A stretch of DNA of 38,958 nucleotides from Thermoleophilia bacterium (GTDB lineage: Bacteria; Actinomycetota; Thermoleophilia; Gaiellales; Gaiellaceae): contig JAICGP010000003.1 in assembly GCA_025923055.1 (NCBI GenBank), positions 1 through 38,958 on the forward strand, in the 5' to 3' direction. A model generated the notes under the pieces. The model was not told the origin of the DNA, made no database searches, and saw nothing but the letters and a program-made list of their open reading frames with translations. The number at the start of each line of letters is the position of its first letter. The stretch's first letter is position 1. This document shows positions 30,368 through 36,338 of the stretch, piece after piece. The translations under genes were made by a program, and so were the position numbers.

Positions 30368-31384
30368 GTGCGGAAGCGCTCGATCATCCAGATGACGCTG
30401 GTCGGGGTGGTGGTGGGCCTGGCCCTCGCCGCCGTCGCGTTCTTCATCCCGTGGCTCCCGGACGCCGCCTCCGAGCAGGCCGACATCATCGACTCCGTCT
30501 ACTGGGTCGTGACGGTGATCTGCGTCGCCATCTTCGCGCTCGTCGCAGGCGTCGCCGTCTACGCGGTCTGGAAGTTCCGCGCCGCCCCGGACGACATGGA
30601 CGACGGCTCCCCCATCCACGGGCACACCGGCCTGGAGATCGTCTGGACGCTCGTACCGACCGTGCTCGTGACGTTCATCGCCGTCTACTCGGGCGTGGCG
30701 CTCGCCCAGGCGGAGGACCTTCCCGACGACCACCGGGTGGTCGAGGTGACGGGCGAGCAGTTCGCCTGGACGTTCACGTACCCGGACGTTGAGCTCGAGA
30801 ACGGCGAGCCGCTCGCCTCCGGTGAGCTCGTGCTCCCGGTGGGAGAGCCGGTCGAGTTCCTGATCACGTCGAAGGACGTGATCCACTCCTTCTGGGTGCC
30901 CGAGTGGCGCATGAAGCAGGACGCCGTACGGGGCGTCACGACGCGGACGGTCGTGGAGCCGTCGAAGGTCGGCACCTTCGAGGTGATCTGCACGGAGCTC
31001 TGCGGTCTCGGCCACGCCGTCATGCGGAGCCGGGCCCGGGTGCTGTCGGCAGGTGACTTCTCCGCCTGGGTCGAGGAGCAGCGCCGGCTCGCCGCCGAGG
31101 GCGGCTCCGTCCAGGGCGAGGCGCTCTTCTCGGCCCAGTGCGCGAGCTGCCACGTCCTCGAGGAGGCCGGCAGCCAGGGCCAGGTCGGCCCGAACCTCGA
31201 CGAGTCGCTCGAGGGCGCCGAGGAAGACTTCGTCCGGGAGTCGATCGTGGAGCCCAACGCTACGATCGCGGAAGGCTTCCAACCCGACGTGATGCCGCAA
31301 AACTACGGAGAGCTGTTCACGGACGAGCAGATCGACGGCCTCGTCGAGTACCTGCTCGAGGCGACCGGAGGGGGAGGGCGCTAG
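30368..31384 (+). CDS. coxB: Cytochrome c oxidase subunit II with C-terminal cytochrome c domain (caa3-type)
   Basis: CuA motif CTELCGLGHAVM; heme motif CASCH; GEALFSAQCASCHVLEEAG...GPNLD...MPQNYGELFTDEQIDGLVEYL. Confidence 0.96.
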   Translation: MRKRSIIQMTLVGVVVGLALAAVAFFIPWLPDAASEQADIIDSVYWVVTVICVAIFALVAGVAVYAVWKFRAAPDDMDDGSPIHGHTGLEIVWTLVPTVLVTFIAVYSGVALAQAEDLPDDHRVVEVTGEQFAWTFTYPDVELENGEPLASGELVLPVGEPVEFLITSKDVIHSFWVPEWRMKQDAVRGVTTRTVVEPSKVGTFEVICTELCGLGHAVMRSRARVLSAGDFSAWVEEQRRLAAEGGSVQGEALFSAQCASCHVLEEAGSQGQVGPNLDESLEGAEEDFVRESIVEPNATIAEGFQPDVMPQNYGELFTDEQIDGLVEYLLEATGGGGR

Positions 31385-33336
31385 TGGCCGTCGAGATCGA
31401 GCACGCGACCGAGCACCACCCGGCGCACGCGCCGCCGCCGCCGCGGCGTGGGCTTCGCCGCCTGACCGGCGCCGGCTGGCTCCGCGTCCTCTGGGTGATG
31501 CCGCTCAGCTTCGGGCTCGCGACGCTCCTCGTGATCGGCGCGCGCGCCGCCATGGGCTTCGACCCGCTCTGGGAGCTCCAGGTCCTGATCGTCGCGTGGA
31601 CGGTCGTCGTCCCGCTTGGATTCCTCGCGGCCCTCGGGGGCTTCGACTACTGGGCGTACTGGATCTCGGGGAAGCCGACCCGGCCCGAGGACCACTCGGG
31701 CCACGGCGCCAGGACGTGGAAGGACTACTTCCGCGTCAACACCGACCACAAGGTCATCGGGATCCAGTACCTCGTCACGACGATCTTCTTCTTCGGCGCG
31801 GCGGGCCTGATGGCGATGTTCATGCGCGCCGAGCTGGCGCGGCCCGGCATGCAGTACGTGGACACGAACACGTTCAACGGGCTCTTCTCGGTGCACGCGT
31901 CGCTGATGATCTTCCTCTTCATCATCCCGGCGTTCGCGGGCCTCGGGAACTACGTCATCCCGCTCATGTTGGGCGCGCCGGACATGGCCTTCCCGCGCCT
32001 GAACGCCCTCTCGTTCTGGCTCCTGCCGATCGCCGGCCTGATCATGATGTCGAGCTACCTGGTGCCGGACGGGGGCGCGTTCGCGGCCGGGTGGACGAAC
32101 TACGTGCCGCTCGCCGTGCAGCAGCCGGACGGGAACCTCATGTTTCAGATGGGCGTCCAGTGGGCGGGCGCGTCCTCGATCATGACGGCGCTCAACTTCC
32201 TGGTCACGATCATCACCATGCGCGCGCCGGGGATGTCCTTCTGGCGCATGCCGCTGCTCGTGTGGGCGAACTTCGCCACCTCGACGCTCGTCGTCCTCGC
32301 GACGCCGTTCGTGGCCGGCTCGCAGTTCTTCATCATGTTCGACCGGGTCCTGCACACGAACTTCTTCAACCCGGAAATGGGCGGCGACGTGATCGCCTAC
32401 CAGCACATCTTCTGGTTCTACTCGCACCCGGCCGTCTACATCATGATGCTGCCCGGATTCGGCATCGCCTCGGAGGTGATCTCCGTCTTCGCGCGGAAGC
32501 CGATCTTCGGGTACCGCCTGATGGCGCTCTCGCTGATGGCGATCCTCATCCTCGGATTCTCCGTCTGGGCGCACCATATGTTCGTCTCCGGCATGCAGTC
32601 GTGGATCCGCATCCCGATGATGGTGACGACGCTCGTGATCGCGGTGCCGACCGGGATCAAGGTGTTCAGCTGGCTGGCGACGCTCTGGGAAGGCCGGATC
32701 AGATTCGCGACGCCCATGCTCTTCGCCCTGGGCTTCGTGACCATGTTCGTGATCGGCGGCCTCTCCGGGATCTACCTCGGCTCCGTGCCGGTCGACATCC
32801 ACGCGAGCGACACCTACTTCGTCGTCGCCCACATCCACTACGTCCTCTTCGGCGGCTCGCTCTTCACGATCTTCGCCGGGATCTACTACTGGTTCCCGAA
32901 GATGACCGGCCGCATGTACGACGAGCGGCTCGGGAAGATCCACTTCTGGCTGACGTTCGTCGGCTTCAACGTGACCTTCTTCCCGATGCACTGGGTCGGG
33001 CTCCAGGGGATGCCGCGGCGCGTCGCCGACTACGCGCCCGAGTTCGGCAACTGGAACCTCGTCATCTCGATCGCGTCGTTCGGCCTCGGCGCCTCGACGC
33101 TCGTCTTTCTCTACAACATGATCGTGAGCTGGCGCGCCGGCGCGCCCGCGGGGCCGAACCCGTGGCGCGCGCTGACGCTCGAGTGGCAGGTCTCCTCGCC
33201 GCCGCCGATCTTCAACTTCCACGAGATCCCGCAAGTCGTCGGGAGCCCCTACGAGTACGGAGTGCGCGGCGCGCGCCACGCCGTCCTGAACGGCGACCGC
33301 GCCGCCGTCGAGGAGCGCGAGAAGGTGGAGGCGTGA
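31384..33336 (+). CDS. coxA: Cytochrome c oxidase subunit I
   Basis: TDHKVIGIQYLVTT, VHASLMIFLFIIPAFAGLGNYVIPLMLGAPDMAFPRLNALSFWL, QHIFWFYSHPAVYIMMLPGFGI, VAHIHYVLFGG. Confidence 0.98.
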   Translation: MAVEIEHATEHHPAHAPPPPRRGLRRLTGAGWLRVLWVMPLSFGLATLLVIGARAAMGFDPLWELQVLIVAWTVVVPLGFLAALGGFDYWAYWISGKPTRPEDHSGHGARTWKDYFRVNTDHKVIGIQYLVTTIFFFGAAGLMAMFMRAELARPGMQYVDTNTFNGLFSVHASLMIFLFIIPAFAGLGNYVIPLMLGAPDMAFPRLNALSFWLLPIAGLIMMSSYLVPDGGAFAAGWTNYVPLAVQQPDGNLMFQMGVQWAGASSIMTALNFLVTIITMRAPGMSFWRMPLLVWANFATSTLVVLATPFVAGSQFFIMFDRVLHTNFFNPEMGGDVIAYQHIFWFYSHPAVYIMMLPGFGIASEVISVFARKPIFGYRLMALSLMAILILGFSVWAHHMFVSGMQSWIRIPMMVTTLVIAVPTGIKVFSWLATLWEGRIRFATPMLFALGFVTMFVIGGLSGIYLGSVPVDIHASDTYFVVAHIHYVLFGGSLFTIFAGIYYWFPKMTGRMYDERLGKIHFWLTFVGFNVTFFPMHWVGLQGMPRRVADYAPEFGNWNLVISIASFGLGASTLVFLYNMIVSWRAGAPAGPNPWRALTLEWQVSSPPPIFNFHEIPQVVGSPYEYGVRGARHAVLNGDRAAVEEREKVEA

Positions 33337-34211
33337 GCGAGAGCGCGGGCGACCCCTACGCCGCGCAGCCCGAGCCGCCCGCCGCCGAGCGGCCGCGGCA
33401 CGTCCTCGTCGTCGCCAACGAGACCGTCGCCGGCCGGACGCTCATCGACGCGATCGCCGAGCGGGCGGCCGCGGGGCCGATCCGGGTCACCGTCGTCTGC
33501 CCCCAGAACGACCCCCGGGCCGGCTATGTCGTCTACGAGGAGAGCCGGCGCTCGAGCGCCGACCGGCGGCTCCGCCGCACGCTCGACCTCCTCCACGAGG
33601 CGGGGATCGCCGCGCGGGGCGCCGTCGTGGCGCCCGACCCGCTGGACGCGCTCCGCGACGCGCTCCACCAGTACGCCCCGGTGGACGAGGTCGTCATCTC
33701 GACCCATCCGGGCGCCGTCCGCTCGAGCTGGCTGCGGGCCGGTCTCGTCGAGCGGGCGCGCAAGGCGGCCGGCGACATCCCCGTCTCGCACGTCGAGGTC
33801 GACCTCGCCGCCCCGCGCGAGCGCGCGCACGTCCTCGTAATCGCCAACCAGACGATCGTCGGGGGGCCGCTGCTCGCGGCGATCCGCGAGCGCGCGCAGG
33901 CTTCGCCGGCCGAGTTCACGCTCGTCGCCCCGGCCGACCAGCCCGGCGTGCAGCGCCGGCTCGCGCGGGCGCTCGCCCAGCTCCGCGAGGCGGGCATCGA
34001 GGCGACCGGCCACATCGGCGACCCGGACCCGGTCAACGCCGCCCTAAACGCGGTGCACGACGAGCGCGTCGACGAGATCGTCGTCTCGACGTTCCCGGAG
34101 GCGACGTCCGGCTGGCTGCAGCGGGACGTCGTCGGCCGGATCGAGAAGGGCGCCGACCTGCCGGTCCGCCACGTCGTCGTCGAGGCCGCCCAGGCCGAGG
34201 CCCTGACGTGA
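33333..34211 (+). CDS. Tandem Usp-like (non-canonical) domain protein inside the oxidase operon
   Basis: Domain 1 RHVLVVANETVAGRTLIDAI...DEVVISTHPGAVRSSWLRAGLVERARK...PVSHVEVDL; domain 2 AHVLVIANQTIVGGPLLAAI...DEIVVSTFPEATSGWLQRDVVGRIEK...PVRHVVVEA; GTGA overlap with coxA. Confidence 0.85.
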   Translation: MSESAGDPYAAQPEPPAAERPRHVLVVANETVAGRTLIDAIAERAAAGPIRVTVVCPQNDPRAGYVVYEESRRSSADRRLRRTLDLLHEAGIAARGAVVAPDPLDALRDALHQYAPVDEVVISTHPGAVRSSWLRAGLVERARKAAGDIPVSHVEVDLAAPRERAHVLVIANQTIVGGPLLAAIRERAQASPAEFTLVAPADQPGVQRRLARALAQLREAGIEATGHIGDPDPVNAALNAVHDERVDEIVVSTFPEATSGWLQRDVVGRIEKGADLPVRHVVVEAAQAEALT

Positions 34212-34221
34212 GGGTGCGCTG

Positions 34222-34827
34222 ATGGCCTCCGTCGCGCACGCACACGACCACCCGCCCGCGGCGCACCAGAGCTCCCGCGTCGACTCGCGCCTGCTCGGCA
34301 TCTACTTCTTCATCGCCTCCGAGGTGATGCTCTTCGGCTCCTTCTTCAGCGCATACTTCTTCGCGCGGGTCGTCGTCGGGGCCGAGGGCGGCTGGCCGCC
34401 CGAGGGCTTCGAGCTGCCGGTCTACCTCGCCCTCCTGAACACGATCATCCTCGTGACCTCGAGCTTCACGATGCACTGGGCCCTGCAGGCGGTGAAGCGC
34501 GGCAACCGCTCCGGCCTCGTCGCGGGCCTGACCCTCACCTTCCTCCTCGGCCTCACGTTCCTGCTCATCCAGGCCCGCGAGTACACGCGCCTCGGCTTCG
34601 CGCCCTACGACAACGCGTTCGGCTCGACGTTCTACGGCCTCACGGGCCTCCACGGAGCGCATGTCTTCGTCGGCCTCAACCTGCTGCTCTACGCGCTCAT
34701 CCGCTCGCTCCGCGGCCACTTCGGGCCCGAGCCTGAGAAGCACCTCGGCGTCGAGCTGCCGGGGATCTACTGGCACTTCGTCGACGTAATGTGGATCATC
34801 GTGTACGTCACGGTGTATGTGATCTAG
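34222..34827 (+). CDS. coxC: Cytochrome c oxidase subunit III
   Basis: RLLGIYFFIASEVMLFGSFFSAYFFAR, FYGLTGLHGAHVFVGL, GIYWHFVDVMWIIVYVTVYVI. Confidence 0.96.
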   Translation: MASVAHAHDHPPAAHQSSRVDSRLLGIYFFIASEVMLFGSFFSAYFFARVVVGAEGGWPPEGFELPVYLALLNTIILVTSSFTMHWALQAVKRGNRSGLVAGLTLTFLLGLTFLLIQAREYTRLGFAPYDNAFGSTFYGLTGLHGAHVFVGLNLLLYALIRSLRGHFGPEPEKHLGVELPGIYWHFVDVMWIIVYVTVYVI

Positions 34828-34849: not shown

Positions 34850-35518
34850 ATGCGCAATCCGATCCGCACCGAGGCCGAAGCCTTCACCTTCGTCCTCGTC
34901 TGCGCCGTCCTCTTCGCCGCCGTGGCCGTCGCCGGCGTGCTCGGCGGCGGCTGGGTCGCCCTCGGCGTCTTCCTCGCCCTCGGGCTGGGCGTCGCCATCG
35001 GCATCTACATGAAGACCGAGCCGAAGGAGGCGGAGCCGGCCGTGTGGGCGCGTGGGCGGGACGACCGCCGGCGCCTGCTCGTCGTGGCCAACGAGACGGT
35101 CGCCGGGCGGGCGCTGCGCGACGAGGTGGTCCGGCGTGTGCGCGGCGGCGAGGACGTCCTCGTCGTCTGCCCGGCGCTGAACAGCCAGCTGCGCCACTGG
35201 ACGTCCGACGAGGACCGGGCGCGCGGCGAGGCGCAGGCCCGCCTGGAGGAGTCGCTCGCCGCGCTGGCCGACGAGGGCGTCCGCGCCCGCGGTCAGGTCG
35301 GCGACGCCGACCCCGTGCAGGCGGTCGAGGACGCCCTCCGGACGTTCGGCGCCGACGAGATCGTCGTCTCCACCCATCCGCCGGGACGCTCGAACTGGCT
35401 GGAGCGGGGCGTCGTCGAGCGGGTGCGCGAGCGCTTCCCCTGCCCGATCCACCACGTCGTCGTCGACCTCGAGGCGGAGCGGGGCGCCGCCCGCGCCGGG
35501 GTCGACGAGGCTTCCTAG
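34850..35518 (+). CDS. Two-TM subunit-IV-like segment fused to a Usp-like domain
   Basis: MRNPIRTEAEAFTFVLVCAVLFAAVAVAGVLGGGWVALGVFLALGLGVAIGIYMKTEPKE then RRRLLVVANETVAGRALRDEVV...DEIVVSTHPPGRSNWLERGVVERVRERFPCPIHHVVVDLE. Confidence 0.85.
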   Translation: MRNPIRTEAEAFTFVLVCAVLFAAVAVAGVLGGGWVALGVFLALGLGVAIGIYMKTEPKEAEPAVWARGRDDRRRLLVVANETVAGRALRDEVVRRVRGGEDVLVVCPALNSQLRHWTSDEDRARGEAQARLEESLAALADEGVRARGQVGDADPVQAVEDALRTFGADEIVVSTHPPGRSNWLERGVVERVRERFPCPIHHVVVDLEAERGAARAGVDEAS

Positions 35519-35967
35519 CCGCCGGCCTGGGTCGTCTCGGCCGCGCCGGTGCCCGTGCCGCCGCGGTCGCCGCTGGGGTCGCAGCCCTCGATGTCCTTCC
35601 CTGCGACGCTCGCCACGTAGGCGGCGACGTCCACCGCGTCCTGGCCCGTGACGAGATCCGAGGGCATGTTCCCGCGGGCTAGGTCGATCTGCCGGAGGAC
35701 GACCTCGTAGATCGTGTCCTCCTCGAACCCCTGGGCGCACGAGAAGCCGAGCGCCGTGTCGAGGTTGGGGCCGACCGTCCCGGCGGCGCCGGCGTCGGCG
35801 AGAACGTGACACGAGCCGCACGGCTGCTTGCCGTCCGCCCCGGCGAGGAAGAGCTCCCTGCCGTTCGTCGTGTCCGCGCCCTCGAGGCCCGTCGTCTCCT
35901 CGCCGCCGCAGCCCGCCACCACCAGCGCGCCGAGGACGAGCGGGAGGGCGAGCAGCCGGCCGAGCAC
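35515..35967 (-). CDS. Cytochrome c lipoprotein
   Basis: Lipobox ALVVAGCGG; heme motif CGSCH in NGRELFLAGADGKQPCGSCHVLADAG...GPNLD; distal Met in ARGNMPSDL. Confidence 0.9.
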   Translation of the reverse strand: MLGRLLALPLVLGALVVAGCGGEETTGLEGADTTNGRELFLAGADGKQPCGSCHVLADAGAAGTVGPNLDTALGFSCAQGFEEDTIYEVVLRQIDLARGNMPSDLVTGQDAVDVAAYVASVAGKDIEGCDPSGDRGGTGTGAAETTQAGG

Positions 35968-35972
35968 CGTCC

Positions 35973-36338
35973 CTACTGGCTCGGGGCTTCGACCGCCGCG
36001 GGGGCCTCGAGAGCCTCCGCCCGTGTCGCGTGGATCGGGAAGACCCGGTTCAGGCCCGTGATCTCGAAGATCTTCGTGATGTTGCGGTCGCTGCAGACGA
36101 TCGAGAGCCGGCCCTCGTGAGGGCGAAGCCGCTTGACGCCGCCGACGAGGACGCCGAGGGTCGTCGAGTCGATGAAGGTCGTATCCGTGAGGTCGACGAC
36201 GACGTGCTTCGCCCCCTGCCCGATCACGTCGAGGAGCTGCTGCTTGAAGTCGGGCGCCGTGTAGAGGTCGATCTCTCCCGTCAACGCGATGACGAAGGTC
36301 TCGCCCGACACCTGCTCCGTCTTGATGTCGAAGTTCAT
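35973..36338 (-). CDS. STAS-domain anti-sigma factor antagonist
   Basis: VIALTGEIDLYTAPDFKQQLLDVIGQGAKHVVVDLTDTTFIDSTTLGVLVGGVKRLR; conserved Ser in DSTTLG. Confidence 0.93.
   Translation of the reverse strand: MNFDIKTEQVSGETFVIALTGEIDLYTAPDFKQQLLDVIGQGAKHVVVDLTDTTFIDSTTLGVLVGGVKRLRPHEGRLSIVCSDRNITKIFEITGLNRVFPIHATRAEALEAPAAVEAPSQ

What the first reader, a model, noticed from the sequence alone, without database searches (positions are those of the whole stretch)
34850..35518. Apparent fusion of a small oxidase membrane subunit to a soluble Usp-like sensor domain
The first ~60 residues form two TM helices at the position where actinobacterial operons usually carry a small subunit IV. The rest (RRRLLVVANETVAGRALRDEVV...) is the Usp-like domain. 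This would tether the soluble domain to the oxidase complex. The subunit-IV assignment rests on position and topology, not on detected homology.
Basis: partly seen in the sequence, partly recalled or inferred. Interest (0 to 1): 0.7.

Follow-up and report, generated by a model that had tools for sequence, protein, structure and literature searches.

The report
Oxidase-operon membrane peptide fused to Usp domain
In a group of uncultured soil actinobacteria, a tiny membrane protein encoded at the end of the respiratory-oxidase operon has gained a soluble "universal stress protein" domain, which probably holds a cytoplasmic sensor against the oxidase; the gene arrangement is well supported by comparison, but physical attachment and function are untested.

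Summary
Window 34850-35518 encodes 222 aa: two membrane helices (res 8-32, 34-55), then a Usp-fold domain (res 75-205). It follows coxC by 22 nt in coxB-coxA-doubleUsp-coxC-fusion, a caa3-type operon.

The fusion is not an accident of one genome. It recurs directly behind coxC for 55 of the 62 fused genes on named Thermoleophilia contigs. The membrane part is a separate conserved module (signature NPLRSEAEAFRF). Behind coxC it also occurs alone: 55-72 aa in three relatives of the same family, 66-95 aa in family f8, and 35-40 aa with one helix in families f10/f11 (Solirubrobacterales-like). The module is therefore separable from the Usp tail and tied to this oxidase operon.

It shows no significant homology to any oxidase subunit IV family (Pfam, NCBIfam, PDB, profile-profile against CtaF). 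"Subunit IV" remains a positional and topological assignment. The Usp domain is closest to Thermus TT0030 (2IEL), lacks the canonical ATP motif, and groups with freestanding single Usp proteins, not the neighbouring double Usp.

Best reading: a small accessory oxidase subunit or assembly peptide carrying a cytoplasmic ligand- or partner-binding Usp domain. Binding to the oxidase and the ligand are inferred.

The parts
34850..35518 (+). fusion gene, 222 aa: 2-TM module + Usp domain
34850..35020 (+). NPLRSE-type membrane module (res 1-57; helices 8-32 and 34-55)
   Evidence: AF2; hydropathy; stand-alone homologues
35072..35467 (+). Usp-fold domain (res 75-206), freestanding-Usp subfamily
   Evidence: Pfam PF00582; 2IEL; tree
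30368..31384 (+). coxB/ctaC, subunit II with C-terminal cytochrome c (caa3 type)
   Evidence: COX2_TM, COX2, Cytochrom_C
31381..33336 (+). coxA/ctaD, subunit I; COX1 domain begins at residue 126, the N-terminal extension has hydrophobic stretches
33333..34211 (+). double Usp-like protein (292 aa), soluble, between coxA and coxC; found in several families of the class
34222..34827 (+). coxC/ctaE, subunit III lacking the first part of the COX3 model (matches model positions 77-255 of 258)
35515..35967 (-). convergent small cytochrome c (CGSCH), lipoprotein-like N terminus; usual neighbour of the operon

Best explanation
The gene encodes a small accessory protein of the Thermoleophilia caa3-type oxidase whose membrane hairpin has acquired a cytoplasmic Usp domain. 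The hairpin (signature N-P-L-R-S-E-x-E-A-F-R-F at the start of the first helix) probably packs against subunit III/I as a minor subunit or assembly peptide. Two helices with arginines at the N terminus and K/R after helix 2 put both ends, and so the Usp domain, in the cytoplasm. The Usp domain most likely binds a small ligand or the co-encoded double Usp protein, and modulates assembly, stability or turnover of the oxidase, as TeaD does for a transporter. Shown: gene structure, predicted fold, operon conservation, separability of the two halves, lineage of the Usp domain. Inferred: physical binding to the oxidase, topology, ligand, direction of regulation.
For: Same gene order with the fusion behind coxC for 55 of 62 fused genes on named contigs, median gap 17 nt in match coordinates. 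A search by the TM-module sequence alone across 199 class genomes led to 20 loci read outside the window's family; 15 carry a stand-alone module within about 300 nt downstream of coxC on the same strand. Within the family the module is unfused in L037 (72 aa), L038 (59 aa) and L071 (55 aa), and carries a decayed Usp tail in L041, L044 and L045. The double Usp between coxA and coxC is conserved in several families of the class. Confident AF2 fold; nearest solved fold 2IEL, then many Usp proteins including TeaD, MSMEG_3811-cAMP and KdpD-Usp-c-di-AMP. TeaD is the regulatory subunit of transporter TeaABC (PMC8280820).
Against: No sequence relation to a known oxidase subunit. Operon neighbours need not bind each other. 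Some fusions (L195, L196, L213; L211 and L128 at 3 kb; L130, L132 and L145 with no coxC on the stretch held) are not beside coxC, so the module may also act elsewhere. CoxA has a 125-residue N-terminal stretch before the COX1 domain that could supply extra helices. The canonical Usp ATP motif is absent in all 245 domains examined, so nucleotide sensing is not supported by sequence. Several relatives dispense with the Usp tail.
Confidence: 0.5

Rival explanations
1. The module is an assembly factor or maturation peptide for CoxC/CoxA and not a subunit of the finished enzyme; the Usp domain acts as a chaperone-like or stress-dependent brake on assembly.
For: Position directly behind coxC; tiny conserved peptide of 35-40 aa in families f10/f11; conserved charged/aromatic NPLRSEAEAFRF segment.
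Against: Nothing sequence-based separates this from a subunit.
Confidence: 0.25
2. It is a true subunit-IV/CtaF homologue diverged beyond recognition, supplying the two helices that CtaE-type subunit III lacks.
For: CoxC matches only model positions 77-255 of COX3. In M. smegmatis CtaE lacks TM1-2 and CtaF supplies them (PMC8361435). PF12270 is absent from the own genome. hhalign places the module on the first CtaF hairpin.
Against: hhalign probability 6.6% and 1.8% with the wider alignment; the f10/f11 forms have only one helix, so they cannot supply two; CoxA's N-terminal extension is an alternative source of helices.
Confidence: 0.15
3. The membrane part is only a generic anchor for a Usp signalling protein that shares the operon for co-regulation and does not touch the oxidase.
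For: TM-Usp fusions away from cox genes exist (L195, L196, L213).
Against: The module without any Usp domain is kept behind coxC in several families, which a Usp anchor would not explain; a specific signature is conserved in it.
Confidence: 0.1

Closest known systems
TT0030 of Thermus thermophilus (PDB 2IEL), Usp-like single-domain protein
   Same: Closest solved sequence (E 8.8e-9) and fold (E 9e-9) to the soluble domain; shares the ST-PPG-S-WL segment
   Different: A 138-residue chain with no membrane module; deposited as a hypothetical protein
Universal stress protein family (PF00582), e.g. TeaD of the TeaABC transporter, KdpD Usp domain
   Same: Fold; Usp domain serving a membrane protein
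   Different: Lacks G-2X-G-9X-G(S/T); tethered by a module linked to an oxidase operon
Actinobacterial cytochrome c oxidase subunit IV, CtaF (PF12270)
   Same: Small hydrophobic protein encoded beside coxA/coxC; in L224 directly after coxC
   Different: CtaF is about 130 aa with two hydrophobic hairpins; no significant sequence or profile match
Mitochondrial COX subunit IV with nucleotide-binding soluble domain
   Same: Idea of a soluble domain on a small subunit controlling the oxidase (ATP/ADP effect: Napiwotzki and Kadenbach 1998, seen only as a reference title in PMC8361435)
   Different: No homology; analogy only

Membership tests
Universal stress protein (PF00582) | Five-stranded alpha/beta Usp fold | tested here: met
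   AF2 model and Foldseek to many Usp structures; Pfam above its cut-off by 1 bit
Universal stress protein (PF00582) | G-2X-G-9X-G(S/T) ATP-binding motif of the ATP-binding subgroup | tested here: not met
   0 of 245 unique domains. Not decisive for binding: TTHA0350 binds ATP without a detectable motif (PMC12159084)
Actinobacterial oxidase subunit IV CtaF (PF12270) | Match to the PF12270 profile | tested here: not met
   hhalign 6.6%
Actinobacterial oxidase subunit IV CtaF (PF12270) | Gene inside the cox operon next to coxA/coxC | tested here: met
   CtaF positions
Any oxidase small subunit | Physically part of the purified oxidase | not testable with these tools
   needs purification and mass spectrometry or a structure
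Other small oxidase subunits with solved structure (e.g. Thermus caa3 subunit IV) | Sequence similarity to chains in the PDB | tested here: not met
   profiles A1 and A4 against all PDB chains, E up to 10: the only oxidase chain was 9wcx 'cytochrome c oxidase polypeptide 4' at E 0.57 with A1, and none with A4

The most novel reading that the evidence does not exclude
Thermoleophilia oxidases carry an undescribed class-specific micro-subunit (NPLRSE peptide, 35-72 aa), and in Gaiellaceae-like bacteria this subunit holds a Usp ligand sensor on the cytoplasmic face which, together with the co-encoded double Usp protein, forms a Usp assembly that controls the terminal oxidase according to a cytoplasmic signal: a bacterial parallel to allosteric control through mitochondrial subunit IV.
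Probability: 0.25. Interest if true: 0.75.

Novelty: new variant of a known kind. Interest (0 to 1): 0.55.

Why it matters
Control of a bacterial haem-copper oxidase by a built-in soluble sensor domain would be unusual, and a fusion is a strong hint of a physical link between Usp proteins, whose targets are mostly unknown, and a defined respiratory enzyme. The double Usp gene inside the same operon across the class makes that link testable in cultured relatives such as Gaiella or Solirubrobacter.

Tried and rejected
Subunit IV by homology: Pfam and NCBIfam, single and per-member scans, PDB profile searches with the family alignment and a wider alignment, and profile-profile against seven CtaF-type proteins: no significant hit. 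Recent duplication of the neighbouring double Usp: rejected, because the double-Usp domains (with the f2 single domains of the same operon slot) form their own starred group (98; 32 rows) and mostly carry R where fused and freestanding domains carry E at position 185. Pfam's NTP_transf_3 hit to the double Usp protein is taken as spurious. DUF2244 weak hits (13 of 27 members, best E 7.5e-4, below cut-off) judged generic two-TM similarity. Distribution outside the class: none in the other classes among 247 genomes of the phylum at E 1e-4. Literature: no paper found in the held library linking Usp proteins to this oxidase operon. No complex prediction is offered by the tools.

Full report
Observation. 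Window 34850-35518 (+) is an intact 222-codon gene starting 22 nt after the coxC stop. Hydropathy and an AlphaFold2 model built from 37 fused sequences (mean pLDDT 87.5) give two membrane helices at 8-32 and 34-55, a less certain linker, and an alpha/beta domain at 75-205. The domain is Usp-like: PF00582 just over its cut-off, PDB 2IEL at E 8.8e-9 by sequence and as best fold match, followed by many Usp structures.

Neighbourhood. Upstream on the same strand are coxB with a C-terminal cytochrome c domain, coxA, a 292-aa protein made of two Usp-like domains (GTG start at 33333, overlapping the coxA end) and coxC. Downstream, convergent, are a small cytochrome c with a lipoprotein-like N terminus and an anti-sigma-factor-antagonist-like protein (named from its sequence, not searched); the same neighbours recur in most relatives.

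Conservation of the fusion. Of 61 genomes searched, the window's own included, 45 have matches. Reading the loci shows coxB-coxA-doubleUsp-coxC-fusion again and again. On contigs of named genomes (Gaiella sp. FR_16, Candidatus Gaiellasilicea maunaloa, Gaiellaceae bacterium KatS3mg012 and many Thermoleophilia or Actinomycetota MAGs) 62 genes are fused, and 55 of them lie just behind coxC on the same strand. Of the other seven, one lies 3.4 kb away and six are on stretches where no coxC was found.

The two halves are separable. In three relatives of the same family the membrane module stands alone (L037 72 aa, L038 59 aa, L071 55 aa), and in three it carries a decayed Usp tail (L041, L044, L045). 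A profile of the module alone, run over 199 genomes of the class, found short ORFs in other families. I read 20 loci around such hits. Fifteen have a stand-alone module close downstream of coxC on the same strand (4-59 nt in most, 178 nt in L197, 304 nt in L208): 35-40 aa with a single helix (for example MLNPLRSEEEAFRFLLYAIAVIAVIVGAILLARSLL) in families f10 and f11, and 66-95 aa with two hydrophobic stretches in family f8. One (L210) is a stand-alone module on a stretch where no coxC was found. The other four are TM-Usp proteins: L211 lies 3 kb from coxC, and L195, L196 and L213 are not near cox genes. P4, E8 and F12 of the signature are invariant in the wider alignment A4. None was found in other classes among 247 genomes of the phylum. 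The search used only the module's sequence, so its return to the coxC flank is independent support that the module belongs to this oxidase operon. The 20 loci were chosen from the stronger hits and are not a random sample.

Is it subunit IV? By position and topology it could be; by homology it cannot be shown. For the membrane part no Pfam or NCBIfam family reaches its cut-off. PDB profile searches give only chance-level hits, among them 9wcx 'cytochrome c oxidase polypeptide 4' at E 0.57; hhalign against seven CtaF-type proteins gives 6.6%. PF12270 is absent from this genome and passes its cut-off in 1 of 119 class genomes. CoxC here matches COX3 from position 77 on, like CtaE, whose missing helices 1-2 are supplied by CtaF in M. 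smegmatis (PMC8361435). The module might fill that place, but the single-helix forms and the 125-residue N-terminal extension of CoxA argue against a simple equivalence.

Origin of the Usp half. In a tree of 91 domains the double-Usp domains, with the single domains that family f2 has in the same operon slot, form a supported group (98) that excludes the fused domains. The fused domains lie among or next to freestanding single Usp proteins, one group of which (family f2, L035/L036) is 61-63% identical to the fused domain. Position 185 is mostly E in fused and free domains and mostly R in double-Usp domains. So the fused domain is not a recent copy of its neighbour. With 137 columns for 91 rows the tree leaves the number of fusion events open.

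Function. N81-E82-T83, P108, R131, T175-H176-P177, S181, W183 and H202 are invariant or nearly so across cox-linked fusions, which suggests a conserved pocket. The canonical motif G-2X-G-9X-G(S/T) is absent from all 245 domains; this does not exclude nucleotide binding (TTHA0350, PMC12159084). Arginines before helix 1 and basic residues after helix 2 indicate that both ends are cytoplasmic (inference from the positive-inside rule). Usp domains acting on membrane proteins are known: TeaD on TeaABC, and the Usp-like inner lobe of KCC transporters (PMC8280820). On this basis the best explanation is an oxidase accessory peptide that carries a cytoplasmic Usp binding domain, working with the co-encoded double Usp protein to adjust assembly or activity. 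Binding to the oxidase, the ligand and the sense of regulation are not shown.

Verdict. The architecture is real and conserved; the tethering idea is strengthened by the free-standing module behind coxC; the label subunit IV is not supported by homology. I rate it a new variant of a known kind (Usp domain attached to a membrane complex).

Noticed in passing
window 33333-34211: A two-domain Usp-like protein is encoded between coxA and coxC in several families of Thermoleophilia; family f2 has a single domain there. It may be as important for the oxidase as the fusion.
   Followed up: partly
L194, L197-L203, L206, L207, L212: A conserved micro-protein of 35-40 aa with one TM helix (NPLRSExEAFRFL...) follows coxC in families f10/f11; likely to be missed by gene callers because of its size.
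   Followed up: yes
window 31381-33336: CoxA has about 125 residues before its COX1 domain, with hydrophobic stretches that look like two extra TM helices.
   Followed up: no
L223, L227-L233: In several other actinobacterial families a CtaF-like C-terminal hairpin (PF12270 positions 61-127) lies in a long open frame between coxA and coxC, possibly fused to CoxA.
   Followed up: no
window 35515-35967 and 35973-36338 (- strand): A convergent lipoprotein-like cytochrome c and an anti-sigma-factor-antagonist-like protein flank the oxidase operon and recur together in most relatives.
   Followed up: partly
L195, L196, L213: TM-Usp fusions lie away from cox genes; the L196 open frame runs 392 aa.
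   Followed up: no
L034 (G000:C34:11210-11626): The own genome has a further freestanding single Usp protein, 47% identical to the fused domain, outside the oxidase operon.
   Followed up: no
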